Origin: Yersinia rochesterensis
GTDB taxonomy: Bacteria > Pseudomonadota > Gammaproteobacteria > Enterobacterales > Enterobacteriaceae
Reading direction: 5' to 3'
Length of the DNA: 64,000 nt
Assembly (NCBI RefSeq): GCF_003600645.1
Contig: NZ_CP032482.1
Span: 1,674,001-1,738,000, forward strand
Made by a program: the position numbers and the translations under genes. This document shows positions 31,385-64,000 of the stretch, one piece after another (position 1 is the first letter of the stretch; each line of letters begins with the position of its first letter). The notes below the pieces were generated by a model. It did no database searches. It saw nothing but the letters and a program-made list of their open reading frames with translations, and was not told where the DNA came from.

Positions 31385-31398
31385 ACTGTTTCTCTGCT

Positions 31399-34824: not shown

Positions 34825-34886
34825 AGTGCTTACTTATCCTTATTTTTTCTAGTTTGTATCGGCTCCGTTACCGGTTGGCCAACATA

Positions 34887-34913: not shown

Positions 34914-34916
34914 TAG

Positions 34917-35447: not shown

Positions 35448-35481
35448 GAGATTCCCACTTAAATTTATGATGTTTCTCCCC

Positions 35482-35535
35482 ATCATTCTTCAAGCTGCAT
35501 GTGTGTTGACGGCAACTCGAATTATTTAGGGTATA
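35482..35535. repeat. ERIC remnant upstream of the fimbrial subunit gene
   Basis: CATTCTTCAAGCTGCATGTG ... AACTCGAATTATTTAGGGTATA joins both ends of the ERIC palindrome with most of the middle missing (about 54 bp left). Its transcription from the fimbrial promoter would place a hairpin in the leader. Confidence 0.65.
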
Positions 35536-41047: not shown

Positions 41048-41063
41048 TGGCTCCTCTGACTGG
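41048..41063 (-). other. Probable attachment site: bare 16-bp 3' end of tRNA-Asn
   Basis: The 16 bases TGGCTCCTCTGACTGG are identical to 29070-29085, the 3' end (including CCA) of the intact tRNA-Asn, in the same orientation. Similarity stops abruptly at 41064. The reverse complement matches 16 of the 17 bases I recall for the HPI core (CCAGTCAGAGGAGCCAA). The tRNA terminator lies on its left, so the inserted DNA must lie on its right. The intact tRNA and integrase are then expected beyond the window. Confidence 0.8.
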
Positions 41064-43824: not shown

Positions 43825-44538
43825 TTAGTAAATAACGGTAATGACTTTGTCTGTATCGAGTTGATAATAACCGGTGCGCTGGAATCCCGCTGCAAGCGCG
43901 GGCGTCAGGGCGTACGTCAGCTGAATACAGAAGGTTTGATTGCGCGTGTTTATATCGGTAATTATAGCGCTGTCAAAACCGAAAACTTTCCTCACCTGAG
44001 GATATAGCGCCTTATAGAGACTCTCTTTTGCCGAAAACGCGATGTGTAATGCCGTGTTATAATCTATTTCACTTTCCCTCAGGCGTTTCCGCTCACTTTC
44101 TTGAACGATCGTTTCGGCTATTTCCTCCAGCGCTTCGGGGTTAAAATTCTCAATATCAATACCGAGCAGGTATACTTTATTTTGCGGGGCGATAACCGCT
44201 ATCGCACAGCGTTCTGTATGAGAAATAGAACCAAGCCATCCCTCTGGCCATATGGGCGCCCCTTCCGCTGATTGGGCGACCTGCGCATAGATTTGCCTTT
44301 CGTTTAATAGCGTTTGCGCGGCAAGACGCCCGCACAGATATTCGCAGCGACGCTTTACTACCGCGGCGAAGAGCTTTTCTGGAAACGGAATCGAATGCTC
44401 CGTGAATAGCTCATCGCGATAGTTGCTTGTTTGAAACGCTACCTCACAGACACCTATTGAGGGTTGACGAATTAGATGGCCGGTTTTATGTGAGCGCATG
44501 AATTTGCCATCAGGTAGCTTTTTTGTAAATACAAACAT
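43825..44538 (-). CDS. 4'-phosphopantetheinyl transferase (EntD/YbtD-like)
   Basis: 237 aa. The enzyme attaches the phosphopantetheine arm of CoA to carrier-domain serines. Motifs of the EntD type are GWLGSISHTERCAIAVI, LGIDIENFNPEAL (Mg2+ ligands) and IAFSAKESLYKALYP. It is divergent from the NRPS operon over a 407-nt gap and presumably activates the five carrier domains of the two synthetases. It is lower in GC than the NRPS genes beside it, so it may have a separate origin. Confidence 0.93.
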   Translation of the reverse strand: MFVFTKKLPDGKFMRSHKTGHLIRQPSIGVCEVAFQTSNYRDELFTEHSIPFPEKLFAAVVKRRCEYLCGRLAAQTLLNERQIYAQVAQSAEGAPIWPEGWLGSISHTERCAIAVIAPQNKVYLLGIDIENFNPEALEEIAETIVQESERKRLRESEIDYNTALHIAFSAKESLYKALYPQVRKVFGFDSAIITDINTRNQTFCIQLTYALTPALAAGFQRTGYYQLDTDKVITVIY

Positions 44539-44878
44539 GAGTGAAATGAGACCATGGTTGAAGCTGGGGATATATTCTATTTAGGCTATACGGAGCAGCA
44601 TGTTTTAGCAATTTTATTGTGGTTTAAGATGTCAGGCGTCGGCTGGGGAAAATTAGCCTCTGTGCCAGGCAGGGCATTTGTCGGGGATACGGCGAACACT
44701 TATCCACGTCATTGCAATGGATCTCCGGCGCCTGCAGCGCTGAGCGGAACGGTTTTGAGTTTCACAACTTTTCAGAGTGAAGAGCACATATTCGGTGCTG
44801 TTATTTGGCCCTTCGCATATTCAAATGTCTTAAGGCATAACTTATAACGCATGACGGCAGACAGTGATTAAAACCAAC
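44539..44878. promoter_or_regulatory. Divergent promoter region, PPTase / NRPS operon
   Basis: About 340 nt without a convincing gene (a 97-codon frame on the plus strand has no family resemblance or ribosome site). AT-rich stretches such as GGCATAACTTATAACGC near 44834-44850 could serve as a -10 region for the NRPS operon. I could not identify a Fur box or an AraC/YbtA-type repeat with confidence. Confidence 0.4.
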
Positions 44879-44938
44879 ATATCTCCTCATCGGCAAGGAA
44901 ATAGCCGAAACCTGTTTTCGGCTATTTACAGGAGATAT
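44879..44938 (+). promoter_or_regulatory. Leader RNA structure that pairs with the NRPS Shine-Dalgarno
   Basis: ATATCTCCT (44879-44887) is exactly complementary to AGGAGATAT (44930-44938), which contains the ribosome site of the 3192-aa synthetase. Inside it a second perfect 12-bp stem, AAATAGCCGAAA (44899-44910) with TTTCGGCTATTT (44916-44927), has a 5-nt loop. Together they make one long hairpin with an 11-nt/2-nt internal loop and the AGGAG buried in its base. The ATG at 44946 follows 7 nt after. This looks like a translational switch or thermosensor. Function is inferred. Confidence 0.65.
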
Positions 44939-44945
44939 CACCACC

Positions 44946-47900
44946 ATGAGTTCGCCAGAAGCGCTGTTAAAAAGTCTGTTAACCCGACTGTTAGGTGTGC
45001 CCTCAAAGCAGTTGCATGACGAAAGTGACTTAATCTGTCACGGCCTGGATTCGATGCGCACTATGCGTGCGGCCAGCGAACTGCGCCGCGCAGGTATATC
45101 CGTCAGGTTTACCGAGCTGATTGGAAAAAGAACGCTGGCGGAATGGATTGCCGTTGTGCGGGCGGCCAATAGCATTACCGAGCCTCCAGCCACGCACGTC
45201 AACGCGGGCGAAGCCCCTTTTGAACTGGCGGCGATGCAACATGCCTTCTGGATCGGTCGCCAGGAGCAACAGCAACTTGGCGGTGTCTGCGCCCATTTTT
45301 ATGCCGAGCTTGATGGGGCGGAGCTGGAACCTGAGCGTCTTAATCAGGCGTTTAAGCAGCTTATAGCCCGCCATCCGATGCTACGGATGCGTATCAATAG
45401 CGAAGGGTTACAGCACACCGTCGCGGTTTCAGATTGTCAGCTACAGGTGAATGACTTAACCGACCTCTGCGCGACGGAAGTGGCGCTACGGCTGGAAAAA
45501 TATCGTCGACGCTACACCCACCAGCGGCTGGATATCGAACAGGGCCAGACGATGATGCTGGCACTGACGCAACTGCCCGGACGGCGTAGCCGGCTGCATC
45601 TGGATCTCGATATGATCGCGGGTGACGCCGCCAGTCTGCGCATCCTGCTGCGCGAACTGGCCTCGCTCTATGCCCGGCCCGACGCATCCCTTCCTGAGCT
45701 AGATTTCAGCTACCAGAGCTATCTCCGGCAAAAGCGTGAAAACCAGCAGTCGCAGTGGCAGGAAGATCGCCGCTGGTGGCAGCAGCAATTAGCCGATTTA
45801 GCCGGTCCGCCGGCCTTACCGCTGCGCACCACCAGCGCTGTTCCCCGTACTGAACGCAAACACTTTTGTCTTAATGAAGCTCAAAGTCAGACGCTGTCGC
45901 AGCTGAGTCAACAGGCCGGGCTGACCGTTCCGGTCGTGTTGGCAACGTTGTTTTCTGAGGCAGTGGGTTTGTGGAGCGGAGCCGCTCCCTTCGTGCTTAA
46001 CCTACCTGTATTTTCCCGCCACTCCGACCATCCTCAGGTCGATCTGCTGGTCGGTGATTTCTCCAGCTCGGTGCTGGTGACGATTGAACCTGCCAGTCAG
46101 CCTGACTTTATTGCCCAGGCGCGAGGATTCCAGGGAAAGCTGCATCAGGCAATGGCGCATTCGACCTACGGCGGCGTGGAGGTGCTGCGCGATCTGGCCC
46201 GCCAGCAAAATGGCGAACAGGTACTGGCTCCGGTGGTTTTCACCAGCGCGCTGGCGCTGGGTGAATTGTATGAACCCCAGGTCAGGCAGACGCTGGGCGA
46301 CCCGGTTTGGTCAATCTCGCAGGGGCCGCAGGTGTGGCTGGATGCCCAGGCCACAGAGTATCAGGGAGGTATCCTGCTGAACTGGGATTTCCGCGCCGAT
46401 CTGTTCTTACCCCAGGCTATTGACGCGATGTTTGACTGGTTCCGTCAGTGTACGCTTGCGCTGCTGGACGATCCCGCCAGCTGGCGGAAACCGCTTGCCA
46501 CGCCGGTTCCGCTGGTCTCATTCCCTCAGCCCGAAGCGCCTGTCGCATCGGATATTCCGCTCCATCAGCGCTTTTTCGACCAGGCTCAACGGCGGCCCCA
46601 GGCGATTGCGCTGATGTGGGGGGACAAGCAGCAGCTGACCTATGGCGAGCTGGCGCATCAGGCGCTATGCGTTGCCGGATATCTGCAGCAGCAGGGCGTG
46701 AAGGCAGGCGACTACGTTGCCGTCAGCATGGGGAAGGGCATCGGCCAGGTTATCGCCGCGCTGGGTATTTTGGCCGCCGGCGCAGCCTATGTCCCCTGCG
46801 GGATAGATGTGCCGTTACAACGCCGCCGGCAGGTGTATCAGACGGCTGACGTGCAGTGGGTCCTGAGCGACGATCGGCCCGGTTGCCAGCCGTCATGGCC
46901 AGAAGGGGTCGCCGTGGTGCCGCTCAGCGCGGCGCTCGCCAGTCCGCCATTGCCATCGTGCCTGCCGGTTTCGCCTCAGCAGGCCATCTACGCGATCTTC
47001 ACATCCGGATCGACGGGGACGCCAAAAGGCGTGGCCGTTTCACATGGCGCGGTAGCCAATACCATTGATGCCGTCGACGGCCTGTTCCGGTTCACGTCGG
47101 CGGATCGCACCATCTCGCTTTCTGAGCTGGATTTTGACCTGTCGGCTTACGATATCTTCGCCAGCCTGAGCCGCGGGGCGGGCCTGGTGGTAGTCGATGA
47201 ATTCCAGCGCCGGGACGCCCACGCGTGGGTGGCGTTGTTACAGCGCTGGCAGGTCACGATCATCAGCTGCGTTCCGGCGCTATTGGATATGATCCTCACC
47301 GCCGCGGCCGACACCCCCCTGCCATCGCTGCGTCTGGTGATGATGGGGGGCGATCGCATTCCGGCGGAGATGGCCTCGCGCTGGTGGTCGCTGACCGGGC
47401 AGGCCGCATTTGTCGGGCTGGGCGGGATGACGGAAGCCGCTATCCACTCAACGGTGTTTGTCCTGCAACCGGATGATACGCGATGGTCAGCGGTGCCTTT
47501 CGGGCAGCCGCTGGCAAATATGCATTGCCGTATCGTCGATGACCGCGGTCGCGATTGCCCGGCCTGGGTCGGCGGCGAGCTGTGGGTTAGCGGACCCGGC
47601 CTGGCTCTGGGTTATCTGAAGGATCCCGTCCGTAGCGCGGAAAAGTTTGTTGAGGATGCTGGCCGCCGCTGGTATCGCAGCGGCGACCGAGTTCGCTACT
47701 GGCCTGAAGGCATCATTGAGTACATTGGGCGTACCGATCAGCAGATTAAAATACGCGGCCACCGTATTGAATTGGGTGAGATTGAAACCGCGTTACTCAG
47801 CCATCCCCAGGTGCTTCAGGCAAGCGTTGGCATCGTATCGCCGGCGGCCAGACAGCTGTGCGCCAGCCTGGTGACCTTGCAACCCCTGAGCCATGCCACG

Positions 47901-50900
47901 CTGCGCAGCTGGCTACAGGCGCAGCTGCCGGCCTATGCGGTGCCGGAACACTATCAGTTCCTCGCAGAAATGCCGCTGACGGCGAACGGTAAACTGGACC
48001 GTCGCGCGTTGCAGCAGCAGGCAGAGCGGCAGCTGGCGAGCGCTGAACGACAATTTCTGCCTCCCGAAGGGGAGATTGAGCAACGGGTCGCCGCCCTATG
48101 GCAGCAGTTGCTGCAGGTCGCGCAGGTGGGGCGCGAGGACAATTTCTTCGTGCTGGGTGGCGACAGTCTGATCGCCACGCGCTTAATCGCCAGAATGCAC
48201 GAGCAAAGCCTTACCGCCCCCCTGGCCGAACTCTTCGCCACGCCAACGCTGGCGGCATTTTGTGGCCATGTCCGACGCCAGCATCAGGTGCCTGACCAGC
48301 CGCTTAGCGCCGATGAAGCCAATCGTTATCAACCGTTCCCGCTCAGCGATATCCAGCGCGCCTTCTGGATCGGTCGCTCCGGGGAAATGACGCTGGGGGC
48401 GGTAGGGTCGCACTTCTACATTGAATTCGACGGCCAGGGCCTGGATGTCGTGCGGCTGGAACAGGCCTGGCGTCAGCTGATGCTGCGTCATGACATGTTG
48501 CGCGTTCGCGTAACGGAGGAGGGGCAGCAGCAGGTCGCGGAGCAGCTTCCGGCGTGGGAAATTGAGCAGCACTGGTTGAATGAAGATGCGCAGGCTGAAC
48601 TGGCAACCCTGCGCGAAACGCTGTCGCATCAGGTTTACGATCCCTGTCGGTGGCCGCTGTTCGCCATCCATGTCGCCCATTATGCGCAGCGCCAGCGTTT
48701 ATTCGTCAGCCTGGACAGTATGATGCTGGATGGCCGCAGCATCATGGTGCTGTTTACTGAATGGGATCGGCTGTATCGCGATCCCCGCTCCAGCCTGCCG
48801 GAACTGGCTATCCGCTACCGCGACTATGTCGTGCAAAATCAGCCCGCTGCGGAGCGCGAGCGGCAGGCACAGGCGTGGTGGCAGCAGCATCTCTCAACGT
48901 TACCGGAACGTCCCGCGCTGCCGCTGGCGATCGCGCCGGAAACCCTGCAACAGCCGCGTTTTCGCCGCTGGAGTCACGAGCTATCTCCCGACCGCTGGCA
49001 GCAGTTAAAGGCGGTGGCGAAAAGTTACGGCATTACGCCGAGCGTGGTGCTGGCCGCCGCCTATGGCGAAGTGCTGGCTCGCTGGAGCAACCAGTCCGCG
49101 CTGGCCATTAACCTGACGATGTTCGATCGTCAGCCGCGCCACCCGCAGATTAACCATGTGGTCGGTGATTTTGCCTCCATTCTGCTGCTGGGTTATCAAA
49201 GCAGCGCCGGAGGTGATTTCCTCGCCGCGGCCCGTCGCCTGCAGCAGCAGGAAGGGGCGGCTCTGGCGCAACGCGGCGTGTCCGGGATCTGGGTATTGCG
49301 CGAACTGGCCCGCCAGAAGGGTCAGACCATGGCCTCAATGCCGGTGGTGTTTACCAGCGTTATCGGGCTGGATAAAGACGCGTCTCTCGATCTTTCGGAT
49401 GCCTTCCCCCAACAAATCTATGCCATCACGCAAACGCCGCAGGTGTGGCTGGATGCAAAAATAAGCGAGTCGCGCGGGCGTCTGCTGCTGGAGTGGGATG
49501 CGCTGGAGGCGTTATTCCCGGCGGGCATGATCGAGGCGATGTTCAGCGGCTACTGCCAGCTGGTGGCGCAGTTAACCCAATCCGACTGGCGCCAGCCGGT
49601 GGCGCTCCCCTTACCGGAGAGCCAGCAGCAGGTGCGCCGGCTCATCAATCAGACCGCTTTCTCCTTCCCGGATTCGCGACCGCTGTACCTGCGCTTCTTT
49701 GCCGAGGCCCGTCAACGTCCGGACGCCGACGCGCTGCTCTGGGGCCAGGAAGGGCGGATGGATTACGGCACCCTGGCGCAGCAGGCGCTGGCGGTTGCGG
49801 GGTATCTGCAGCAACAGGGGGTGCAACCCGGCGACAGAGTCGCCATTACTCATGCCAAAGGCTCCCGGCAAATTGTCGCGGTGCTGGGCGTGCTTGCAGC
49901 GGGGGGCTGCTATGTTCCCTCCGGCATCGGTTTACCGCAAGCGCGCCGCGCGGTGGTCTATCGCGATGCCGGGGTAAAGCGGGTGCTGTGCGATGAAAAC
50001 AGCTTGCACCAGCTCAGCTGGCCGCAGGGCGTAGCGGTAACCAGCCTGAGTGAGGCATTGCGGGCGCCCCCCCTGGACGCGCCCCTTGTGCAGCCCGCGG
50101 AGGCCGCGAAGTACATTATCTTTACCTCCGGTTCAACCGGTACCCCCAAAGGGGTGGTGGTGAGTCATGGCGCGGTGGCGAACACCGTTGATGCCGTCGC
50201 GGCGCGGTTTGGCATCAGCGACAGCGATCGCTCCATCACCCTGTCGGCCCTCGATTTCGATCTCTCAGCCTACGACATTTTCACCTTCCTCGGGCGCGGC
50301 GCCTCGCTGGTGGTGGTGGACGAGGCGGAGCGCCGTGATGCCGCCGCCTGGGTAGAGTTAATTAACCGCTGGCAGGTCAGCGTCATCAGCGCCGTACCCG
50401 CATTGATCGAGATGATTACCGTTGCGGCTCAGGCGCATGGACTCACTCAGGCGCTGCGTCTGGTGATGGTCGGGGGCGATCGCGTGGTGCGCCAGCTGCC
50501 GCAGGATTTATGGCAGCTGTCGCCGCAGGCGCGTTTTGTCTCCCTCGGCGGGATGACCGAGGCGGCGATTCACTCGACGTATTATGAGATCCAGTCTGAC
50601 GATCCCTGGTGGGCATCGGCGCCGTACGGCGTCCCGCTGGCGAATATGCAGTGCCGGGTGGTGGACCAGCAGGGAGGTGACTGCCCGGACTGGGTCAAAG
50701 GCGAGCTGTGGGTCAGCGGGGCCGGCGTGGCGACGGGCTACCACGGTGATGAACAGCGCAGCGCAGAGAAGTTTGTCGCGTGGCAGCAACGCCGCTGGTA
50801 TCGCACCGGCGACGTCGCCAGCTATCGTCCCAACGGCGTGCTGGAGTTCTTTGGCCGGGCCGATAATCAGGTCAAGATCCGCGGCCACCGCATTGAATTG

Positions 50901-54524: not shown

Positions 54525-57500
54525 AAATTTCTGACGTTATCGTACGACTGGAAACCCAGGGCATTGAGCTATGGCAGGAAGAGAACCAGCTGCGCTTTCG
54601 CGCCCCCGCGGGCGTGATGACCGAAGCCATTATGCAGGAGCTGCGCGACCATAAACCGGCCATCCTCGACTGGCTCAGGCAGCAGGAGAGCGGGGCAGCG
54701 CTGCAGGCCGATCCCGATGCGCGTTTTGCACCTTTCCCCTTAACGGAGGCGCAGCAGGCCTATTTTGTCGGGCGCCATAGCGCGTTCGCGTTCGGCGGCG
54801 TCGCCTGCCGGGGGTATCTGGAGATCTGTTTCGAGCGGCCCGTCACGCCTGCGCAGCTCAGCCGGGCGCTTAATCAGCTGATTGCTCGCCACGACATGCT
54901 GCGGGTGGTGATTGAGGAAGAGGGATTCCAGCGCGTTTTGCCGCAGGTGCCGCTATTCCAGCCGCAGCAACACGAATGGCCAGACCTGCCCACCACAGAG
55001 GTCGGGGCGCGTATCGCTGAGCTGCGCGAAGCGATGCTGGCTGCCCCGGCGGATTACCAGCGCTGGCCGCTTTTTGCCGGGGCCACTATCCTCGCGGCAG
55101 GACAAACCCGCCTGCTGTTGTCGATTGAGCTGATCCTGGTGGATTCCGCCAGCCTTTATCTGCTGGTGGATGAACTGGATCAGCTGCTGTTTGCCCCCGA
55201 GACGCTGCTGCCCGCGCCCTCGCTGGGGTTCCGTGACTACGTGATTGCCCGGCGCGCGGCGCGCCAGGGCGTACGCTATCGTAAGGCGCAGCAATACTGG
55301 CGGGAGCGGATCCCCGAGCTTCCCAATGCTCCGGCCTTGCCCGTTAGCGCCGCCGCTGAGAAAGCCACCTTTGTCCGTCGCCATCTGCGTTTGTCCCATC
55401 AACAGCGCCAGCGGCTGAACCAGCTGGCCGCGAAGGCGCAGGTGACGCTGAACGCGCTGCTGCTGGGGGCGTTCTCGCAGGTGATGGGGTTCTACAGCGA
55501 CAGCCGCCACTTCACGCTCAATCTGCCTATTTTCCGCCGCGAGGGGCAGCATCATGACCTTGAACGGGTGGTCGGGGATTTCACCTCCGTCACGCTGCTG
55601 GAGGTCGATCTGCGTGGGGATGAGGCGTTTGCTCAACAGCTGCTGACCCTCAATCAGCGCCTGTTTGCCGATCTCGACCATAGCGCGTTCTCAGGTCTGG
55701 AAACGTTGGGCGAACTGTCGCGCCATCATGGTGAGGCGGTGCTGATGCCGGTGGTGTTTACCAGCACGCTCGGCCAGGGGGAGCGGCAGGCGGCCCCGGC
55801 GCGCTATCGTATCGAGCAGGGTTTAACCCAAACCCCGCAGGTGTTGATTGACTGCCAGGTCACCGCCCAGCCCGATGGCATGATGCTGGCGTGGGACTCG
55901 CGCGAGGGGCTATTCCCCGCGCGGTTTATTGAGCACGCGTTTGATGCGTTCAGCGGTTTAATCCAGCGGCTGCTGGAGGAGGGGGAGTCTTGTCTTAACC
56001 AGCGTCAGCTGCTGACGCTGCCTGCGGCACAAGCCGCCGTTCGCCAACAGACTAACGCGGATAGCCAGCCAGATTTTGCCCGGCTGCTACAGCAGGGATT
56101 CCTGGATAAGGCGGAACGGCAGCCGGATGCCATTGCGCTGTGGGACGATGAAGGGAGCATGACTTACGGCGAGCTGGCCGCCCGGGCTTACGGACTGGCG
56201 GCGGATTTGCAGCGGGCGGGGCACTGTCCAGGCGAAGCCGTCGCGGTGATGTGCGGGAAAGGGCGGGCCCATGCGCTCGCCCCTCTTGCCGTCCTGCTCA
56301 ACGGCGGGTGCTACGTACCGGTTGATGCGCAACAGCCTGCCCGCCGTCGGGAGGCGATCTTGCGTAACGCCGGGGTGCGCCGGGCAATCTGTGACGATCC
56401 TGAACAACTGCCTGAGGACGTAGAACCGATCGCCTGGCGGACGGAGACGTCGGCGGGTGATTTCCAGCCACTCAGAATTGGTCTCCATCAGCCCGCCTAT
56501 ATTATCTATACCTCCGGGTCCACCGGTGAACCGAAGGGCGTGGTCATTAACCATCATGCCGCCTGGAATACGATTGCCGATATCAACCGTCGCTTTGCGG
56601 TGGGCGCCCGGGATCGGGTCCTGGCGGTGGCTAACCTGAGTTTCGATCTGTCAGTGTACGATCTGTTTGGCGTGCTGGCGGCGGGAGGCGCTCTGGTCTA
56701 TCCGCAGGAAGCGAGAAAGTCGGACCCTTCACACTGGGCTGAATGCATCGCTCAATATGGCGTCACCCTATGGAACAGCGTGCCGGCCCAGCTGCAGATG
56801 CTGGCCGATACGCAACAGCCCCTGCCGACGCTACGCCTGGCGCTGGTATCGGGAGACTGGGTTCCGCTCAATCTGCTGGAACAACTGCAGGCCATCTCAG
56901 CCGATGGTCAACTGATAGCGCTGGGCGGCGCGACTGAAGCGGCAATCTGGTCGGTATTCCATCCGGTCACGCACGTCGCGCCGTCCTGGCAGAGCATCCC
57001 GTATGGTAAGCCGCTGGCCAATCAGCAACTGCATATTGTTGATGAGCGCCTGCACGATCGCCCCGACTGGGTCAGCGGCGAGATCGCCATCAGCGGTGAC
57101 GGGCTGGCGGACTGTTACTGGATGGACAGAGAGAAGACCGCCGCGCGTTTTGTGACCCGCGATGACGGGCGGCGCCTGTACCTGACCGGCGATCGGGGAC
57201 GATACTGGCCGGATGGCAACATCGAGTTTCTGGGGCGGGTCGATAGCCAGGTCAAAATCCGCGGACACCGCGTTGAGCTGGGTGAAATCGCCGCGGCGAT
57301 GCGCCAACACCCGGCGGTCGCCGATGCGGCCGTATGCCTGACGGAAGGTCATGGCACCGCCAGCAACCTGCTGGGATTCGCGGAACTGGCGGCGGGCGAG
57401 CAGCCCAGCAGTCGGCCGGCGATGGAAAGCGCCCGGCAGCGTGCACGGCATATTGAACAGCAGATTGATGGTGCAGCTTTCGAGGCGTTAATGGCGGGAG

Positions 57501-59944
57501 CGGATCGCGTGGCGATTCTCGCGATGTCCGATCGCCTGCGCCAGGATGGCCTGTTCGCCGCGACCGATTCCCGTCACGCGCTGGAGGAGATCTATCAGGC
57601 GACCGGGGTGGCGGAGGTGCATCAGCGACTGTTGCGCCGCTGGCTGGCCGGATTGGTCAGCGCCGGTGCGCTCACCCAGGACCAGGACGCGCAGGGACGC
57701 TACGCAGAGCTGATCCCCTGCGATGCGGCCACCTTGCAGCAGGGCTGGCACGAGGTGGAACAGCTTGAGCAGCGTGCCGGATATGGCAGCCAGACGCTGC
57801 ACTATATCCGCGTTTGCAGCGATTGCCTGAGCGGGCTGCTGCGCGGCGAAACCGATGTCCGCGGTATTCTGTTCCCGGAAGGCGAGCTGTCGACCGCCCA
57901 CGCGGCCTACCGGGATAACCTGGTCAGCCAGAGCATGAACGCGATCGTGATTGCGGCGATCGCGGCGCTGGCGGCTTCCAGCCCCCGCCCGTTACGGGTG
58001 CTGGAAGTGGGGGCCGGCGTGGCGGGGACCGCCAGCGATTTGGTGCCTGCTCTGGCGCCCTGGCAGCCAGAATACTGGTTTACCGATCTGTCAGAGTTCT
58101 TCCTCGTTGAAGCGCGTAAGCTCTTCGCCCCTTATCCGTGGATGCACTACGGCATTTTTGACATGAACGAAGATGCCGGGCGGCAGGGGATGGCGGCGAA
58201 TAGCTTCGATGTGATCCTGTGCGCCAACGTGCTGCATAACGCCCGCAACGCGGGTGACGTGCTGGCGCAATTCTCCTCCTTGCTGGCGCCCGGCGGTACG
58301 CTGGTGTTTATCGAACCCTTCCGTCGTCATAACTACCCGCTGCTGGTTTCGATGGAGTTCTTCCCGGAGCTGACGGGCTTTACCGATCTGCGCGCCACCA
58401 CCGACCAAACGTTCTTTACCCGCGAGCAGTGGCTTGACCTGCTGGCGCAGGCGGGGGCGACGATATCCGATTGCGCCCCGCCGGCGGAAAGCGCGCTGTC
58501 CAGCTCCGGGCAAGGGGTATTTATCGCCCAGTTCAACACGGACCGCGCCAGCCTCCGCGGCGATGAGCTGCGGGATTTTCTGCGCGATCGGCTGCCGGGC
58601 TATATGGTGCCTGCGCATCTGCATCTGCTGGATCGTCTGCCGCGCACGGCTAACGGTAAAACCGATCGTCAGCGGCTGCTGAGCGCCGCGCCGCAGCAGC
58701 TGAGCAAGGCGGAGCAGGCAGGCGGCGGTAACGCCCCGCGCGACGCGCTGGAACAGCAGATTGCTGCCGTCTGGGCGGAAGTGTTGGGGCTGGCGGACGT
58801 GCAGCGCGATGCTGACTTCTATGCGCTGGGCGGCGACTCCCTGCTGTTATCTCGCATGATCGGACGTCTGCGCGCCCGGGTCGCGGCGGCCGCCCATTTC
58901 GAATGGGAAACCCTGCTGCGCCATCTGCTGCGGGAGTCCACGGTGATGGCGCTGGCGGATTTGCTACGCAGCAGCGCGACGCAGGGTGAGCAGCAACAGC
59001 AGGCTCGCGCCGTGCTGGTTCCACTCTGGGGCCAGCAGGATTATCACCGCCACTGCTGCGTGCTGCTTCACGCCGGTACCGGCAATCTCCAGCCGTATCA
59101 GCATCTGCTGGCGAGCCTGGACAAGTCGCTATTTGCCCGCGGTGTTGGTCTCGAACTGCCCAGCCAGCAGGCGTTTATGGCGCTGGCGCCGCATGAGGCG
59201 CTGGTTACGCTGGCCGGTCACTATGCCGATGCGTTGTCAGCGCAGGGGGAAAGCTTCACTTTGCTGGGATATTGCCTCGGTGGCTTGCTGGCGGCGGAAA
59301 TCGCCCGTCAGCTCAGCGAGCGCGGCAAAAACGTGCGCGAGCTGGTGGTCATCAGCGCGTATCAGCCGCCGCAGGTGGATGACGCGCGGCTGGTGGATTA
59401 CGTGTTTGCCCGCGCGATCGGGGCCGACCTCGAGAAGCTGGGGCTGCCGCAGGAGCCGGCGCTGGCCGCCGCCGTGAGCGCTATCCTGCAGCGGACCCCG
59501 CAGCGTATCGCCGAAGACGCATTTGATTGCCTCGACGGCCATCCGCAGGTCGCGCAGGCGCTGACGCGCTGGTTCCGGCAGCCGCAGGCCGTTCGCCTGC
59601 AGGCGCTGCAGACGGCCGGCATGGCCCAGGGGGCCTACCATCAGGAGGATGAAGCCAGCGCGTTGTTTGCGAGTCGTTACGCTTTGTTCGGACATAGCAT
59701 GGCGTCAGTGGGGCAATATCGCCCCGATCCCTGGTTTGGTAAAACCATTCTGCTGCGTAACAGCGAAAGCGATCCTCTCTTGCCCGGTACGCCCGGCGAC
59801 GTTCACGACTACTGGCGCCGACTGTGCCTGGGGGAACTCGTTGTTGAAGACACGCCCGGCGACCATTTTAGCTGCCTGGCTCGTCAGTATGCGCCGACCC
59901 TAGCTGCGCTGATCGCGCGCCACGCCGCGCCGGGAGAAGCCTGA
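54521..59944 (+). CDS. NRPS 2: docking-Cy-A(MT)-PCP-TE terminal synthetase
   Basis: 1807 aa. Residues 1-55 look like a TubC-type docking domain. Cy follows, with ELILVDSAS (Glu203, Asp208, Ser211) where DxxxxDxxS is usual. The A domain has Asp709 in FDLSVYD and pocket DLYNLSLIW, the cysteine code. A methyltransferase is inserted between A8 and A10 with SAM motif VGAGVAG near 1164, as in PchF. The PCP has Ser1440 (GGDSL). The TE has nucleophile Cys1585 in GYCLGG where Ser is normal, and His1782 in GDHFS. Expected job: add, cyclize and methylate the last cysteine and release the chain. Confidence 0.92.
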   Translation: MKISDVIVRLETQGIELWQEENQLRFRAPAGVMTEAIMQELRDHKPAILDWLRQQESGAALQADPDARFAPFPLTEAQQAYFVGRHSAFAFGGVACRGYLEICFERPVTPAQLSRALNQLIARHDMLRVVIEEEGFQRVLPQVPLFQPQQHEWPDLPTTEVGARIAELREAMLAAPADYQRWPLFAGATILAAGQTRLLLSIELILVDSASLYLLVDELDQLLFAPETLLPAPSLGFRDYVIARRAARQGVRYRKAQQYWRERIPELPNAPALPVSAAAEKATFVRRHLRLSHQQRQRLNQLAAKAQVTLNALLLGAFSQVMGFYSDSRHFTLNLPIFRREGQHHDLERVVGDFTSVTLLEVDLRGDEAFAQQLLTLNQRLFADLDHSAFSGLETLGELSRHHGEAVLMPVVFTSTLGQGERQAAPARYRIEQGLTQTPQVLIDCQVTAQPDGMMLAWDSREGLFPARFIEHAFDAFSGLIQRLLEEGESCLNQRQLLTLPAAQAAVRQQTNADSQPDFARLLQQGFLDKAERQPDAIALWDDEGSMTYGELAARAYGLAADLQRAGHCPGEAVAVMCGKGRAHALAPLAVLLNGGCYVPVDAQQPARRREAILRNAGVRRAICDDPEQLPEDVEPIAWRTETSAGDFQPLRIGLHQPAYIIYTSGSTGEPKGVVINHHAAWNTIADINRRFAVGARDRVLAVANLSFDLSVYDLFGVLAAGGALVYPQEARKSDPSHWAECIAQYGVTLWNSVPAQLQMLADTQQPLPTLRLALVSGDWVPLNLLEQLQAISADGQLIALGGATEAAIWSVFHPVTHVAPSWQSIPYGKPLANQQLHIVDERLHDRPDWVSGEIAISGDGLADCYWMDREKTAARFVTRDDGRRLYLTGDRGRYWPDGNIEFLGRVDSQVKIRGHRVELGEIAAAMRQHPAVADAAVCLTEGHGTASNLLGFAELAAGEQPSSRPAMESARQRARHIEQQIDGAAFEALMAGADRVAILAMSDRLRQDGLFAATDSRHALEEIYQATGVAEVHQRLLRRWLAGLVSAGALTQDQDAQGRYAELIPCDAATLQQGWHEVEQLEQRAGYGSQTLHYIRVCSDCLSGLLRGETDVRGILFPEGELSTAHAAYRDNLVSQSMNAIVIAAIAALAASSPRPLRVLEVGAGVAGTASDLVPALAPWQPEYWFTDLSEFFLVEARKLFAPYPWMHYGIFDMNEDAGRQGMAANSFDVILCANVLHNARNAGDVLAQFSSLLAPGGTLVFIEPFRRHNYPLLVSMEFFPELTGFTDLRATTDQTFFTREQWLDLLAQAGATISDCAPPAESALSSSGQGVFIAQFNTDRASLRGDELRDFLRDRLPGYMVPAHLHLLDRLPRTANGKTDRQRLLSAAPQQLSKAEQAGGGNAPRDALEQQIAAVWAEVLGLADVQRDADFYALGGDSLLLSRMIGRLRARVAAAAHFEWETLLRHLLRESTVMALADLLRSSATQGEQQQQARAVLVPLWGQQDYHRHCCVLLHAGTGNLQPYQHLLASLDKSLFARGVGLELPSQQAFMALAPHEALVTLAGHYADALSAQGESFTLLGYCLGGLLAAEIARQLSERGKNVRELVVISAYQPPQVDDARLVDYVFARAIGADLEKLGLPQEPALAAAVSAILQRTPQRIAEDAFDCLDGHPQVAQALTRWFRQPQAVRLQALQTAGMAQGAYHQEDEASALFASRYALFGHSMASVGQYRPDPWFGKTILLRNSESDPLLPGTPGDVHDYWRRLCLGELVVEDTPGDHFSCLARQYAPTLAALIARHAAPGEA

Positions 59945-61071
59945 TGAACGACAGCATCATCGCGGTACTCGGCGCCACCGGCGGCGCAGGGCGCTATGTC
60001 AGCCGCTGGCTGGCTGAGGCAGGATTTGCATTGCGGCTCGGCGGTCGCCGTCGCGATCCTTTGCGGCAGCTGGCAACGCGGCTGGATGCGGAGGCTCGGC
60101 CGGTGGATCTATGGCAGGAGGAGGCGCTTCGCGAGTTTTGCCGGGGCTGTGTCGCGGTGGTGAACTGCACTGGTCCCTCCTATCAGGTGCTCGATCGGGT
60201 GGCGCGTGCTGCTGCCTCGGCGCATGCGCATTATGTGGATGTCTCAGGCGATGGCCCGGCATGGCATCTGTTGCAGGAGCAACCTGCCGGCGATAAGCAC
60301 TGGACTGCGGTGCTCTCCGCCGGGATGCTGCCCGGGCTGGCGAATCTGGTGCCGGGCTGGATGAGCCAGCGTGCCGGCGGCGAGCTGACGGTCTACAGCG
60401 GCGGCATTGAGCGGGTGAGCGGCGCGGCCGCCGCCGATCTGGTGCTGTCGCTAAATGAACAATGCAATGCGTTGCAGGGCAGCGACTACTGGTACGGAGA
60501 AGCCGGTGCCGGCTGGCGGCTCGGCCGTCGCGCGCGCCACGTTCTGTCAACGCAGCAGACGGATACGCTGGCGCATTTCAGCGGTCACGTTACGTTACTG
60601 CCCTGGCTGAGCGCCGACGCCGAACGGCTGGCGCTGCGCCATCATCTCTCCGCTCTGAGCTGGTACAACGTTTTCAGCGGTCAATGCCTGCGGGAAACCC
60701 TGACCGGGCTGCGCGGCAAGGTGGATGGCACATCGCAGAGTCTCGCGCTGGCCCGCGCAGCGGTGGAGAAGGCCAGCGAAATCGATCTGGCGGGCTACGC
60801 CCCTTATTACCAGATGGTGTTTGACTGGCAGCAGGAGGGAGAGCCGCGTCGGCGCGTCGTGGTGCGCACGGACAGCAGCCTGGCGCTCACCGCCGCCACC
60901 GCCGTCAGTACCGTTCTGAGCCTGATGCGCGGCGAGATTGCGCCGGGCGTGCATTTTGCCGACCGCGTCCTGAGCCCGGCGACCGTGCTGGCTGATATCA
61001 CGCGGCTGCATGCGGGCACCCACATCAGCCAGTATCTGCCGGACAGGCAGCCAGAGCAGGGGGTGATATGA
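59944..61071 (+). CDS. Saccharopine-dehydrogenase-fold NAD(P)-binding protein
   Basis: 375 aa. N-terminal Rossmann motif AVLGATGGAGRYVSRWLAEAG, then VVNCTGPSYQVLDRVARAA and AHYVDVSGDGPAWHLL, as in saccharopine dehydrogenase-like oxidoreductases, and a larger unassigned C-terminal domain. TGATG overlap with NRPS 2 puts it firmly in the operon. It may reduce an imine or ring of the product, which would give the pathway two reductases. The substrate is not known. I do not recall this gene in the yersiniabactin or pyochelin clusters. Confidence 0.82.
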   Translation: MNDSIIAVLGATGGAGRYVSRWLAEAGFALRLGGRRRDPLRQLATRLDAEARPVDLWQEEALREFCRGCVAVVNCTGPSYQVLDRVARAAASAHAHYVDVSGDGPAWHLLQEQPAGDKHWTAVLSAGMLPGLANLVPGWMSQRAGGELTVYSGGIERVSGAAAADLVLSLNEQCNALQGSDYWYGEAGAGWRLGRRARHVLSTQQTDTLAHFSGHVTLLPWLSADAERLALRHHLSALSWYNVFSGQCLRETLTGLRGKVDGTSQSLALARAAVEKASEIDLAGYAPYYQMVFDWQQEGEPRRRVVVRTDSSLALTAATAVSTVLSLMRGEIAPGVHFADRVLSPATVLADITRLHAGTHISQYLPDRQPEQGVI

Positions 61072-62159
61072 CTCCAGCTTCGACACCCCGTCGCCGCGCG
61101 ATTGTCTGTGGTACCAGCTTTGGCCGCTTTTATCTGCGCGCGCTGGCCAACAATCCGGCGATTGAACTGGTCGGGATCCTTTCCAGCGGCTCTGCCGCGT
61201 CCGCGGGCTACGCCCGTGAGCTGAATATCGCGCACTACACCTCGGTAGCAAGCCTGCCGGCCGATATAGATCTCGCCTGCGTGGTGGTGAGAGCAGCAGT
61301 CTCGGGCGGCAAGGGCGCGGAAATCGCCTGTAAGCTGTTATCGCGGGGCATTCACGTATTGCAGGAGCATCCGCTCCATCCTGACGAGCTGGCCGATTGC
61401 CTGCGCACGGCGCACCAGCATCGCGTCCACTTTGGCATCAATGCCTTCTACCCCTTTGTGGCCCCCGTCCGCCGCTTTCTCGAGGCGGCCGAGATTCTGC
61501 GTCAGCGCCAGCCGGTGCAATATATTGAAGGCGTGTGCGGCGCACAGGTTCTCTACCCGCTGCTGGATGTGATTGCGCGCGCGCTGGGAAAACTGCGCCC
61601 GGCGCAGCTGGCGCTGATGGAGCCTCGCCAGGTGGGGCCCTACACCTGCCTGCACGGCAGTATCGGCGGCGTACCTCTAACGCTGCGCGTGCAGAACCAA
61701 ATCCATCCGGCGGACGCCGACAACCACGCGCTGTTGCTGCACCGCCTGACCATCACCGCCGAAAGCGGCGTACTGGCACTCGCGGATACCCACGGCCCGG
61801 CGATCTGGAGCCCCAGATTACATACCCATCGCGATGAAACCCATCGCCTGGTGCTGGAGGGCGAGGGGACAGAACGTTTATCGGCAGCCAGCAGCACCCT
61901 TTTGCCCGGCAGCGAAGCCGTCAGCTTCAGCGAGATTTTTGAACGGCTGTGGCCGCAGGCCGTTAACTGCGCGGTAGCGGATTTTCAGCGTTCCATCGAC
62001 GCCCCTGCGCTGGCGCAGCAGCAGGTGCAATGGGCGCTGGGCGTGACCGGATTCTGGCATCGGGTGTCATCGGTGCTGGGGCCGCCAGAACTGATTTATC
62101 CCGACACGCCGGCCATCCTGCCACTTATTGATCGGTTAACTGAGGAGACCCCGCGATGA
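61068..62159 (+). CDS. Thiazolinyl imide reductase (YbtU/Irp3/PchG family)
   Basis: 363 aa, the size of Irp3. These enzymes use NADPH to reduce one carrier-bound thiazoline to a thiazolidine. Recognisable blocks are RAIVCGTSFGRFYLRALANNP (nucleotide fold), LACVVVRAAVSGGKG, GIHVLQEHPLHPDEL and FGINAFYPFVAPVR, which align with Irp3 VIQEHPLHPDD and WINTFYPH. ATGA overlaps on both sides. Its presence implies a Cys-derived thiazoline in the product and, with the MT in NRPS 2, a possible N-methylthiazolidine. Confidence 0.93.
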   Translation: MTPASTPRRRAIVCGTSFGRFYLRALANNPAIELVGILSSGSAASAGYARELNIAHYTSVASLPADIDLACVVVRAAVSGGKGAEIACKLLSRGIHVLQEHPLHPDELADCLRTAHQHRVHFGINAFYPFVAPVRRFLEAAEILRQRQPVQYIEGVCGAQVLYPLLDVIARALGKLRPAQLALMEPRQVGPYTCLHGSIGGVPLTLRVQNQIHPADADNHALLLHRLTITAESGVLALADTHGPAIWSPRLHTHRDETHRLVLEGEGTERLSAASSTLLPGSEAVSFSEIFERLWPQAVNCAVADFQRSIDAPALAQQQVQWALGVTGFWHRVSSVLGPPELIYPDTPAILPLIDRLTEETPR

Positions 62160-62920
62160 GTCAGCATTTTTTACGTTTTTACCAGCCCGCACCCGCTGCG
62201 CCGCTGTTGCTGGTTTGCTTACCCCATGCCGGCGGAGCGGCCAGTACCTTTCGCCCGTGGCCTTACTTGTTCGATGCGTCCGAGGCGGAGCTGGCCGTGG
62301 TGCAGTATCCGGGACGCGAGGACCGCTTCGCTGAGCCCTTCATCGACAATATGCCCGAGCTGCTGACCGCCTTGCAGGAGGAGCTGTTGCCGCATCTGGC
62401 GGGGCGCCGTTTTGCCCTGCTGGGACACAGCATGGGCGGTGCCATCGCCCATGAGCTGGCGCAGTCGCTGGCCGCCCTCGGCCGGCATCCGGAACTGCTG
62501 ATCGTCTCAGGCCGCCAGCCGCCGGATTTTCATCCGCTGGATAGCGGCATTCATTTGGGGAGCGATCGGCAAATTATCGAGGAACTGCTGCGCCTCAGCG
62601 ACGATAACCAGACGCTGCGCGAACAGCCAGAGCTGGCGGAGCTGCTGCTACCGGCGATCCGCAATGATTACCGACTGATCGAGCGTTACCGCCCGCAGCC
62701 CGCGCGTTTGCTCACCTGCCCGATAGTGGTGCTGAGCGGCGAAGGCGACGGTGAACTGCCTCTGTCACAGGCCGAGGCCTGGGCGGCATATACCTCAGCT
62801 GAAAGTATCGTGCATCGTTTTCCTGGCGATCACTTTTTCATTGCCAGCCAGCGTGCCGCCGTGGTGGCCTGCGTGCGGCAGGCATTACGGCAGTTCTCAC
62901 CCTTGTTCAGTGAAGGATAA
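62156..62920 (+). CDS. Type II (editing) thioesterase, YbtT/Irp4-like
   Basis: 254 aa alpha/beta hydrolase. N-terminal LVCLPHAGGAASTFRPW, nucleophile Ser in LLGHSMGGAIAHELA, Asp in VVLSGEGDGELP region and His in FPGDHFFIAS. It removes wrongly loaded groups from carrier domains. Unlike the TE of NRPS 2, it keeps the normal Ser nucleophile. Overlaps the reductase gene by ATGA and is followed by a free methyltransferase after 3 nt. Confidence 0.93.
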   Translation: MSQHFLRFYQPAPAAPLLLVCLPHAGGAASTFRPWPYLFDASEAELAVVQYPGREDRFAEPFIDNMPELLTALQEELLPHLAGRRFALLGHSMGGAIAHELAQSLAALGRHPELLIVSGRQPPDFHPLDSGIHLGSDRQIIEELLRLSDDNQTLREQPELAELLLPAIRNDYRLIERYRPQPARLLTCPIVVLSGEGDGELPLSQAEAWAAYTSAESIVHRFPGDHFFIASQRAAVVACVRQALRQFSPLFSEG

Positions 62921-62923
62921 TCT

Positions 62924-63628
62924 ATGGAAGACTTCTACTCTCCGGTCGCTGAGTTTTACGATCTGGTTGGGCGCGCGCACTCCGCGGGTGAAACCGCGCT
63001 GCGCGAGCGGCTGTCGACATTCACCGATATTCGCGACCCGGTGCTGGATATCGGCGCTGGCACCGGACGAACGGTGCTGGCGGTAGCCGAAACCGTGCCG
63101 CTGGTGGATATTCTGGCGGTGGAGCCGGCCCCGGCCATGCGCGCGGTGCTGACCCATTGCGTGGCGCAAAGGCCGGAAATGCGGCGGCGCGTTACGATTA
63201 TCCCGGACACGGTGGACAAGCTGCAGCTACCCGAGCGCCTGGGCGCGGTCGTCGCCTTCGGGGTGCTGGGACATCTGACGACGCCGGCGCGTCAGGCTCT
63301 GTGGTCAATATTGCTGCCGCGGCTGGCACCCGGCGCGCCGGTATTCGTGGAGCTGCTGCCGGTCGAAAAGCCGATGGTATTGCCGACGATGACGTTGGCC
63401 AGTGAAACGATCGGCCAGCGTCACTATCACGCAACCCTCGAGGGTGAGCCGGGACCCGACGACACCATGCTGCTGACCTCATGCTGGACGGTAAGCGGCG
63501 GCCCCTGCGCCACGCAGGTAATCCGTAACCGGAGCGTCTGGCATACCTTTGGTCTGGACGATCTCGCCCGCGAAACCGGGCTGCATGCGGAACGTCTGAC
63601 CGCGCAGGCGGGGGTGCTGTATGTCTGA
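62924..63628 (+). CDS. Class I SAM-dependent methyltransferase
   Basis: 234 aa. Motif I VLDIGAGTGRTVLAVAE, motif II ILAVEPAPAMRAVL, and VVAFGVLGHLTTPAR define the fold. It is a free-standing enzyme in addition to the MT embedded in NRPS 2, so the product may carry a second methyl group on N, O or C. No close family can be named. Its stop lies inside the following gene (8-nt overlap). Confidence 0.85.
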   Translation: MEDFYSPVAEFYDLVGRAHSAGETALRERLSTFTDIRDPVLDIGAGTGRTVLAVAETVPLVDILAVEPAPAMRAVLTHCVAQRPEMRRRVTIIPDTVDKLQLPERLGAVVAFGVLGHLTTPARQALWSILLPRLAPGAPVFVELLPVEKPMVLPTMTLASETIGQRHYHATLEGEPGPDDTMLLTSCWTVSGGPCATQVIRNRSVWHTFGLDDLARETGLHAERLTAQAGVLYV

Positions 63629-64000
63629 ATCTATTGCTTCCCCCGATCGTCGTATCCTGCCGGAGGAGATGCGCTGGCCGGTGGCGCTGGCCGAGCGCTA
63701 TACGCAACGCGGCTACTGGCAGCCGGAAACGCTCGGCCAGTTGATTCTGCAATGGCGGCAGTATGGTGACCGCACCGCCCTGATCGAACCGGACCGCAGC
63801 TGGAGCTATCACCAGTTAATCAACCAGGCCTGTCGTTTCGCCGGTGAACTCCGGCAGCGAGGGATGCAAAGCGGGGAAACGGCCGTCATTCAGTTGCCCA
63901 ACGGGGCCGATTTCGTGGTGGCCTTGTTCGCGACGATCCTCAACGGGGCGGTGCCCGTGCTGATGCTACCGGCTCACCGCCAGCGTGAAATCCTGCACGT
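63621..64000 (+). CDS. Aryl-AMP ligase (salicylate or 2,3-dihydroxybenzoate), N-terminal part
   Basis: 127 codons run to the window edge. The start MSESIASPDRRILPEEM overlaps the methyltransferase gene. The sequence RWPVALAERYTQRGYWQPETLGQLI and the later VIQLPNGADFVVALFATILNGAVPVLMLPAHRQ matches the beginning of EntE/PchD/YbtE-type ligases. It should activate the aryl cap and load it on the ArCP of NRPS 1. The residue that tells salicylate from dihydroxybenzoate lies beyond the window. No salicylate or DHB synthesis gene is seen inside the window. Confidence 0.9.
   Translation, partial: MSESIASPDRRILPEEMRWPVALAERYTQRGYWQPETLGQLILQWRQYGDRTALIEPDRSWSYHQLINQACRFAGELRQRGMQSGETAVIQLPNGADFVVALFATILNGAVPVLMLPAHRQREILH

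What the first reader, a model, noticed from the sequence alone, without database searches (positions are those of the whole stretch)
43825..64000. A four-cyclization-domain, aryl-capped NRPS locus that does not match known thiazoline siderophores
Two synthetases give ArCP, then four successive Cy-A-PCP modules, with an embedded MT and a TE on the last. Pyochelin uses two such modules; yersiniabactin combines three cyclizations with a PKS module. Here no PKS is in view, two extra cyclizing modules are present, and there are two reductases and two methyltransferases. By collinearity the product would be an aryl cap followed by four consecutive five-membered rings (or ring precursors), the last from cysteine. 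I cannot name a characterised compound with this logic. Metal chelation is an inference from family.
Basis: partly seen in the sequence, partly recalled or inferred. Interest (0 to 1): 0.88.

Follow-up and report, generated by a model that had tools for sequence, protein, structure and literature searches.

The report
Four-ring siderophore island in Yersinia
A 39-kb stretch of DNA inserted at a tRNA gene of what is apparently a Yersinia bacterium carries an assembly line with four ring-forming modules that is predicted to make a new, longer relative of the iron-scavenging compounds coelibactin and sorangibactin, and the same gene set also sits in Enterobacter and on a Pantoea plasmid, so it has probably spread by gene transfer.

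Summary
NRPS1 is ArCP-(Cy-A-PCP)x3, NRPS2 is Cy-A(MT)-PCP-TE, and no PKS-sized gene lies in the next 39 kb. The operon runs on with salicyl-AMP ligase, salicylate synthase, AraC regulator, FyuA-like receptor, importer, exporters and a P450. New here is the order. A1 and A2 carry the code DLYSMGLIH (predicted Ser; Thr possible), A3 and A4 carry Cys codes, so the product should be Sal-Ser-Ser-Cys-Cys. Of the 121 NRPS1-type proteins compared (the best 120 of 2203 hits plus the window's), 16 share this pattern. A1 and A2 are sister groups in the A-domain tree; Nocardia apparently reached four modules separately, by doubling a Cys module. The cluster lies on a 38.9-kb insertion at tRNA-Asn with 16-bp ends and an empty site in two relatives. 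A Fur box precedes araC. Product and metal are unproven.

The parts
41048..41063 (.). left end repeat (16 bp, copy of the 3' end of tRNA-Asn); the other copy is the end of an intact tRNA-Asn at own contig C1:1753942-1754017 (L009:16942-17017)
   Evidence: 16-bp direct repeat; empty site in L077 and L079
41177..42097 (-). LysR-type regulator, inside the insertion (role unknown)
   Evidence: Pfam; also before the Enterobacter cluster; a 94% copy in one other genome of the genus, G404
42690..43649 (+). zinc-type alcohol dehydrogenase/quinone oxidoreductase, inside the insertion (role unknown)
43825..44538 (-). phosphopantetheinyl transferase, predicted to activate the carrier domains
   Evidence: the other genomes of the genus have only a 34-39% relative or (one) none at E 1e-15
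44804..44820 (+). putative AraC-regulator box TTTGGCnnnnYGCATAG, shared with the upstream region of the TonB receptor gene
   Evidence: at both places also in L011 and in Symbiopectobacterium (L055, L034)
44946..54524 (+). NRPS1: ArCP-Cy-A-PCP-Cy-A-PCP-Cy-A-PCP
46536..48035 (+). A1 domain, code DLYSMGLIH, predicted Ser (Thr possible)
49671..51155 (+). A2 domain, code DLYSMGLIH, predicted Ser; sister of the A1 domains of the same clade
52770..54239 (+). A3 domain, code DLFNLSLIW, the PchE cysteine code
54521..59944 (+). NRPS2: TubC_N-Cy-A(MT)-PCP-TE; A4 code DLYNLSLIW (Cys); TE motif GYCLGG (Cys nucleophile)
57947..58462 (+). methyltransferase domain inserted in A4, predicted to methylate the last ring nitrogen
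59063..59881 (+). terminal thioesterase domain with GYCLGG
59944..61071 (+). saccharopine-dehydrogenase-like oxidoreductase (PF03435, the Pfam family named for sorangibactin SrbE); step unknown
61068..62159 (+). thiazolinyl-imine reductase (Irp3/YbtU-like)
   Evidence: TIGR01761 302.5 bits against cut-off 188.8; YbtU/Irp3 structures
62156..62920 (+). type II thioesterase, predicted proofreading
62924..63628 (+). free-standing SAM methyltransferase, predicted to act on a ring nitrogen in trans
63621..64000 (+). start of salicyl-AMP ligase; goes on as L009:621-2225, followed by salicylate synthase, AraC, TonB receptor, importer, exporters and P450 to L009:16616

Best explanation
The locus is an aryl-capped NRPS gene cluster with its own salicylate genes, four Cy-A-PCP modules and no PKS, carried on a 38.9-kb insertion at a tRNA-Asn gene, and it likely makes an iron-chelating siderophore of the coelibactin/sorangibactin kind with two serine-derived and two cysteine-derived rings. 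Salicylate synthase would make salicylate and the AMP ligase load it on the ArCP of NRPS1 (predicted from families). Modules 1 and 2 would each add and cyclise Ser, giving two consecutive oxazolines (inferred from the code); modules 3 and 4 would add and cyclise Cys. The trans-acting Irp3-like reductase would turn thiazolines into thiazolidines, the methyltransferase in A4 and the free-standing one would methylate ring nitrogens, and the P450 may oxidise an oxazoline to an oxazole as is proposed for SrbH in sorangibactin. The Cys-type TE would release the chain, either as free acid or, as proposed for sorangibactin, onto a second nucleophile such as homocysteine (open). ABC exporters, an FyuA-like receptor and a Nik/Opp-type importer would handle export and uptake; Fur would repress araC, and AraC would switch on the NRPS operon and the receptor gene (predicted from sites).
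For: Architecture and motifs. Adjacent pathway genes: salicylate synthase TIGR03494 at 540 bits against cut-off 325; best PDB match of the ligase is a salicylate-AMP ligase, then PchD; reductase TIGR01761 302.5 against 188.8, YbtU/Irp3 structures; receptor nearest the pesticin receptor, that is FyuA. Codes: A3 equals PchE and A4 equals PchF/BacA over the eight positions of the published table (passages of PMC3672683). DLYSMGLIH is not one of these Cys codes; in the Pendulispora rubella NRPS (P0101, probably sorangibactin SrbC) A1 is DLYNLGLIH, and the SrbC A1 is assigned to Ser from labelled-serine feeding (PMC10127202). N. uniformis, maker of uniformides (four five-membered rings, N4S3, so by elimination one oxygen ring), has DLYSMGLIH in module 1, DLFNLSLIW in module 2 and DLWNLSLIW in the NRPS2 A domain. 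Regulation: Fur box with 1 mismatch 119 bases upstream of araC, as good in 0 of 500 Markov resamples of that region, at the same place in L011 and L033; no Zur-like site with 0-1 mismatches in the own cluster. Conservation of the operon: L011/L012 and L033, L081.
Against: No product, expression or metal-binding data. The Ser assignment rests on two related cases; mupirochelin's first residue was assigned Thr. That P0101 is SrbC is recalled, not confirmed (searches did not settle it). The two N. uniformis NRPS pieces lie on different contigs, so their belonging together is inferred. The P450 is not visibly of the coelibactin CYP105 kind: its best PDB matches are CYP125- and CYP126-named entries and none of the 60 listed (of 400) is named CYP105. 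The Fur box is not found upstream of araC in three Symbiopectobacterium loci or in Bradyrhizobium; in Symbiopectobacterium a 2-mismatch site lies near the receptor gene start instead. Family members can bind and respond to zinc (PMC10080011 passages), so iron is not the only candidate metal.
Confidence: 0.72

Rival explanations
1. The locus is a yersiniabactin/pyochelin variant: four cysteines giving four thiazolines, without the PKS step.
For: Irp3-like reductase, FyuA-like receptor, salicylate synthase, tRNA-Asn insertion.
Against: A1 and A2 differ from the Cys codes at positions 278, 301 and 331 in 16 of 16 proteins of the clade; no PKS, and no methyltransferase- or epimerase-like insert reported in NRPS1; the saccharopine-dehydrogenase-like gene and the P450 are not among the yersiniabactin genes as I recall them.
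Confidence: 0.1
2. The product is a zincophore or multi-metal chelator rather than mainly a siderophore, as proposed for coelibactin and seen as zinc complexes of transvalencin A and uniformide A.
For: Family precedents (PMC11364655, PMC10080011, PMC3707159 passages); importer of the Nik/Opp family, with matches below cut-off to staphylopine-metal CntA/CntD/CntF models.
Against: Fur box upstream of araC in three genomes, no 0-1-mismatch Zur-like site in the own cluster (Pantoea L011 has one 1-mismatch site 2.4 kb before NRPS1, outside the shared cluster); receptor nearest FyuA.
Confidence: 0.2
3. Modules 1 and 2 take Thr, or one module skips, so that the product has methyloxazolines or only three rings.
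For: Mupirochelin's first residue was predicted as Thr from MS/MS; Thr codes share Gly301 and His331 (recalled); E for D in Cy4.
Against: Serine feeding in sorangibactin; the Glu is in every NRPS2 homologue printed, and an Asp-to-Ala change at that place in PxbG Cy4 only halved one product (PMC9396620 passage).
Confidence: 0.2
4. The cluster is decayed or silent cargo and makes nothing.
For: In one Symbiopectobacterium relative (L035) only the last 90 residues of NRPS2 and no NRPS1 are found in the 10 kb upstream.
Against: No internal stops in the window genome's genes; NRPS frames open in Enterobacter, one Symbiopectobacterium and Bradyrhizobium and annotated as genes in Pantoea; catalytic motifs kept.
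Confidence: 0.08

Closest known systems
Sorangibactin BGC (Sorangiineae MSr11367), with the predicted coelibactin BGC of Streptomyces coelicolor
   Same: Salicylate synthase, AMP ligase, ArCP-Cy-A start with a non-Cys A1, terminal Cy-A-MT-PCP-TE with Cys nucleophile, Irp3-like reductase, PF03435 oxidoreductase, free methyltransferase, P450 (sorangibactin; here)
   Different: Three modules there, four here; two free methyltransferases and a VOC protein there, one methyltransferase and no VOC gene recognised here; the P450 has other PDB neighbours
Transvalencin A / uniformides A and B (Nocardia)
   Same: Aryl ring plus four consecutive five-membered rings; homologous synthetase with the identical A1 code
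   Different: Nocardia code order Ser-Cys-Cys plus a Cys-like NRPS2 domain; TE with Ser (GYSVGG); modules 2 and 3 are each other's nearest relatives
Mupirochelin (Pseudomonas sp. NCIMB 10586, mch)
   Same: Saccharopine dehydrogenase, P450, reductase, methyltransferases, AMP ligase; hypothetical Fur sites; binds Fe and Zn (passages)
   Different: Three modules; VOC protein; salicylate from a two-gene pathway
Yersiniabactin high-pathogenicity island (features recalled except where cited)
   Same: tRNA-Asn insertion, AraC regulator, FyuA-like receptor, Irp3-like reductase, salicylate synthase, paired ABC proteins
   Different: No PKS, own A domain in each module, two Ser-like A domains, no integrase gene in this insertion
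Piscibactin/photoxenobactin (irp-HPI, pxb)
   Same: Four Cy domains, salicylate start (passages)
   Different: PKS modules present; Cys-loading A domains only

Membership tests
coelibactin/sorangibactin-type cluster | salicylate synthesis and activation genes beside the NRPS | tested here: met
coelibactin/sorangibactin-type cluster | ArCP-Cy-A start with a non-Cys (Ser-like) A1 | tested here: met
   code DLYSMGLIH; P0101 DLYNLGLIH; substrate itself not tested
coelibactin/sorangibactin-type cluster | terminal Cy-A-MT-PCP-TE with Cys nucleophile | tested here: met
coelibactin/sorangibactin-type cluster | trans thiazolinyl-imine reductase and PF03435 oxidoreductase | tested here: met
   no direct comparison with SrbE itself was made
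coelibactin/sorangibactin-type cluster | P450 related to CYP105N1 | tested here: inconclusive
   a P450 is present, but its PDB neighbours are CYP125/126
coelibactin/sorangibactin-type cluster | three elongation modules | tested here: not met
   four; so it is a relative of this kind with one more module, not the same cluster
coelibactin/sorangibactin-type cluster | product aryl-oxazol(in)e-thiazolidines | not testable with these tools
   needs LC-MS/NMR
transvalencin/uniformide cluster | four modules with order Ser-Cys-Cys-Cys | tested here: not met
   A2 is Ser-like
yersiniabactin cluster | PKS portion and one shared Cys A domain | tested here: not met
   no PKS; four A domains
tRNA-Asn genomic island | direct repeats at a tRNA end and empty site in relatives | tested here: met
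   two of three relatives show the empty site, the third matched on the right side only
tRNA-Asn genomic island | integrase gene in the element | tested here: not met
   none of 13 PF00589 matches of the own genome lies in the insertion; other integrase types not sought

The most novel reading that the evidence does not exclude
A second kind of siderophore island has entered Yersinia through the tRNA-Asn door: one whose synthetase became four-modular by copying its serine A domain into an added module, so that it makes a salicyl-bis(oxazoline)-bis(N-methylthiazolidine) chelator released by a Cys thioesterase as a homocysteine thiolactone (predicted [M+H]+ 574.125, 576.140 or 578.156 with two, one or no oxazole), a chemotype without a member in the papers I saw, whose synthetase occurs from Bradyrhizobium to insect symbionts and enterobacteria.
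Probability: 0.3. Interest if true: 0.75.

Novelty: new variant of a known kind. Interest (0 to 1): 0.55.

Why it matters
Four-module assembly lines of this family appear to have arisen at least twice by different internal copying (Ser-type A domain here, Cys module in Nocardia), which is a natural experiment in NRPS extension: an A2 of A1 kinship sits beside a Cy2 that is nearer Cy3, which points to where nature cuts. It also shows that a tRNA-Asn slot, known to me for the yersiniabactin island, holds a chemically different, Fur-boxed siderophore cluster in Yersinia and Enterobacter. A 97% identical NRPS1 is labelled Salmonella enterica and a 94% identical accessory protein Klebsiella michiganensis in public databases. 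A predicted mass and substrate code make the product easy to look for.

Tried and rejected
Megablast of NRPS1 in 20,395 E. coli records gave nothing. The 19-base Fur consensus with up to 3 mismatches gave nothing in the window; the box lies to the right of the window. Four thiazolines: rejected by the A codes. Further PKS or NRPS to the right: no frame of that size in L009/L010. The idea that the left tRNA-Asn at 29070 is the insertion site was wrong: it is flanking DNA shared with relatives; the site is the second tRNA-Asn, in L009. I did not resolve the left end of the longer Enterobacter element. Kineochelin was checked as a possible relative; its described gene set and building blocks are different (one section read). 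PMC7413640 deals, in the passages seen, with nocobactins and did not help. The first A and Cy trees mislabel P0010 by one module because a strict motif missed its first A domain, and 4 of 52 Cy rows (P0037 and P0045, modules 2 and 3) were dropped; the careful A tree repairs the label but leaves out P0100 and P0117 (long rows) and P0045; the Cy tree was not repeated. The clade test was named after the quick tree had been seen. TE nucleophiles were read in 12 of the 21 genome-contig loci plus L011 and the window.
Full report
Check of the observation. Pfam finds in NRPS1 (44946-54524) three A, three condensation-type and four carrier stretches, and in NRPS2 (54521-59944) a TubC_N docking domain, one condensation-type domain, one A domain with an inserted methyltransferase, a carrier and a thioesterase. 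The Cy motifs are DMIAGDAAS, DSMMLDGRS, DNLIVDGLS and ELILVDSAS. The Glu in the fourth is found in every NRPS2 homologue printed, so it looks like a family trait and not decay. The two reductases, a type II thioesterase and the free methyltransferase follow without gaps.

What lies beyond the window. The own contig to the right (L009, where L009 position p is window position 63000+p) carries, in order, AMP ligase, salicylate synthase, AraC regulator, TonB receptor, peptide/nickel-type binding protein, two permeases, a double ATPase, two ABC exporters and a P450 (the permeases were named from gene order and translation only). The salicylate synthase passes its NCBIfam cut-off (540 against 325 bits); the ligase's best solved relative is a salicylate-AMP ligase, then PchD; the reductase matches YbtU/Irp3 and passes TIGR01761 (302.5 against 188.8); the receptor's best solved relative is the pesticin receptor, FyuA. 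The longest frames in L009 and L010 are 769 and 572 aa, so no PKS or further NRPS is there.

Substrates. The nine-residue codes are A1 DLYSMGLIH, A2 DLYSMGLIH, A3 DLFNLSLIW, A4 DLYNLSLIW. A3 and A4 equal the PchE and the PchF/BacA cysteine codes over the eight positions tabulated in PMC3672683 (passages). For DLYSMGLIH there are two anchors. In sorangibactin, labelled serine enters once and the first A domain is assigned to it (PMC10127202, parts 1-3 of 5 read); the Pendulispora rubella protein P0101, which I believe from memory to be SrbC, has DLYNLGLIH there. In Nocardia uniformis, the producer of uniformides (four five-membered rings, N4S3: passages of PMC11364655), module 1 has DLYSMGLIH, module 2 DLFNLSLIW and the NRPS2 A domain DLWNLSLIW (loci L057, L065, L048/L061; the pieces lie on two contigs and module 3 was not seen). 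The sulphur-free ring should therefore come from module 1. That makes Ser (or Thr) likely for both modules 1 and 2 here. Mupirochelin's first residue was assigned Thr (PMC10080011 passages), so Thr stays open.

Distribution. One search listed the best 120 of 2203 proteins. Of these 120 and the window's own NRPS1, 16 have the Ser-like code in both first modules (A2 with Phe for Tyr in P0009 and P0010): the window, P0003 (97%, labelled Salmonella enterica), P0004 (89%, unnamed), P0005 (75%, Serratia symbiotica), two Bradyrhizobium and ten further ones without organism name; 17, of which those with names are Nocardia, have DLYSMGL(I/V)H followed by two Cys-type codes. Among whole genomes, a close saccharopine-dehydrogenase-like gene (59% or more) is in 5 of 392 of the family, the next being 36%, although 56 of 392 have some match at E 0.001; it is in 1 of 394 of the order sample at E 1e-40 (the samples overlap). 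In the genus all 25 genomes have some NRPS2 match, but a whole-length match above 39% is only in the own genome. Named relatives are Enterobacter sp. 10-1 (96%), Candidatus Symbiopectobacterium, Bradyrhizobium cajani, Nocardia and Actinokineospora, 21 loci in all, and the conjugative plasmid pPAT9B02 of Pantoea sp. At-9b, with 86.7% identity over the two NRPS genes and the same order from NRPS1 to P450. The own genus is inferred as Yersinia: the nearest named CobQ proteins are Y. pekkanenii and Y. mollaretii at 89%, after an unnamed one at 95%.

Origin of the fourth module. A1 and A2 are 57% identical, while Cy2 is nearest Cy3 (43%) and not Cy1 (35%). In a careful tree of 47 A domains the A1 and A2 domains of the clade form one group (14 rows, 100/99), and forcing A2 among the Cys-type domains is rejected (p-AU 1.3e-12, with the group named after the quick tree was seen); in 5 of 5 Ser-Cys-Cys proteins A2 and A3 are each other's nearest relatives within the same protein. 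The Cy tree (quick, with the P0010 label shift and four missing rows) places Cy2 of this clade on a branch of its own among the downstream Cy domains. So this lineage and Nocardia apparently became four-modular by different events; gene conversion within the Nocardia proteins is not excluded.

Release and tailoring. The TE motif is GYCLGG in the window, Pantoea, Enterobacter, one Symbiopectobacterium (L034) and Bradyrhizobium, GYCVGG in Actinokineospora, and GYS(V/M)GG in the 8 Nocardia loci read, N. uniformis among them. A Cys nucleophile is essential in sorangibactin, where homocysteine thiolactone release is proposed. Whether this locus does the same is open. The P450 is nearest CYP125- and CYP126-named structures and none of the 60 listed is named CYP105, so its step may differ from SrbH's. 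Predicted masses are; the script reproduces the published sorangibactin value.

Mobility. Own DNA from 41064 to about C1:1753938 (38.9 kb, 61.4% G+C against 45.2% on the left and 48.7% on the right) is missing in two relatives (L077 at 92-96%, L079 at 72-89%), where the flanks abut; the third relative, L078, matched only on the right. The ends share TGGCTCCTCTGACTGG, the end of a tRNA-Asn at L009:16942-17017. None of 13 PF00589 integrase matches lies in it. In Enterobacter sp. 10-1 the same right end meets a tRNA-Asn and the same LysR, dehydrogenase and PPTase precede the NRPS, but other genes follow on the left. The LysR gene alone has a 94% copy in one other genome of the genus, G404, which lacks this NRPS2.

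Regulation. TGATAATGATTATTA, one mismatch from TGATAATnATTATCA, lies 118-119 bases before araC in the own genome (L009:3735), L011 and L033; none of 500 Markov resamples of that region did as well. A box TTTGGCnnnnYGCATAG precedes both NRPS1 and the receptor gene, also in Symbiopectobacterium. Three Symbiopectobacterium loci and Bradyrhizobium lack the Fur site before araC. No Zur-like site with fewer than two mismatches is in the own cluster; L011 has one with one mismatch 2.4 kb before NRPS1. The AraC box was drawn from these same sequences, so its occurrence there is descriptive. Fur and Zur consensus patterns are recalled.

Literature. In the titles and abstract starts listed by the searches (25 of 91 papers shown; 25 of 78; 12 of 1,046 shown), all in an open-access library, I saw no description of this four-module enterobacterial cluster or of its product. 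Transvalencin's cluster paper (Engelbrecht 2021) is known to me only as cited in PMC11364655. PMC12971057, PMC3707159, PMC3505739, PMC7413640, PMC3672683, PMC10080011, PMC11364655 and PMC9396620 were seen as passages only; PMC13238742 as outline and one section; PMC10127202 as parts 1-3 of 5.

Verdict. A real cluster with open NRPS frames on a mobile-looking insertion. It is a new variant of the coelibactin/sorangibactin kind, with a different predicted ring order from the known four-ring transvalencin/uniformide compounds; structure, metal and activity are predictions.

Noticed in passing
44870-44948: The leader just before NRPS1 folds strongly (-24.1 kcal/mol, z -4.8; L011 z -2.2, L054 z -5.3) with the Shine-Dalgarno stretch paired; possible translational control.
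   Followed up: partly
L035, L016, L051: Symbiopectobacterium-type copies seem to decay: in L035 only the last 90 residues of NRPS2 are found in the 10 kb upstream, L016 has a stop in the saccharopine-dehydrogenase-like match, and in L051 the best reductase match covers only residues 6-105.
   Followed up: no
29070-29145: A second tRNA-Asn lies 12 kb left of the island; two tRNA-Asn genes are also in relatives L077 and L079, so two equal insertion sites exist.
   Followed up: partly
35892-40356: A hybrid sensor kinase (two periplasmic-binding-type domains, BvgS-like) and a LuxR-type response regulator beside a chaperone-usher fimbrial operon (29313-35486), just left of the island and shared with relatives L077 and L079.
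   Followed up: no
L080:1-15600: In Enterobacter sp. 10-1 the left neighbour of the shared part is a hydantoinase/oxoprolinase, porin, molybdopterin-oxidoreductase and ABC-permease set; L080:1-15703 has no match of the listed length in the own genome's 103-kb stretch.
   Followed up: no
16597-17964, 18199-19596: An argininosuccinate-synthase-like gene next to a MATE transporter in lower-G+C DNA, possibly a small biosynthetic cassette.
   Followed up: no
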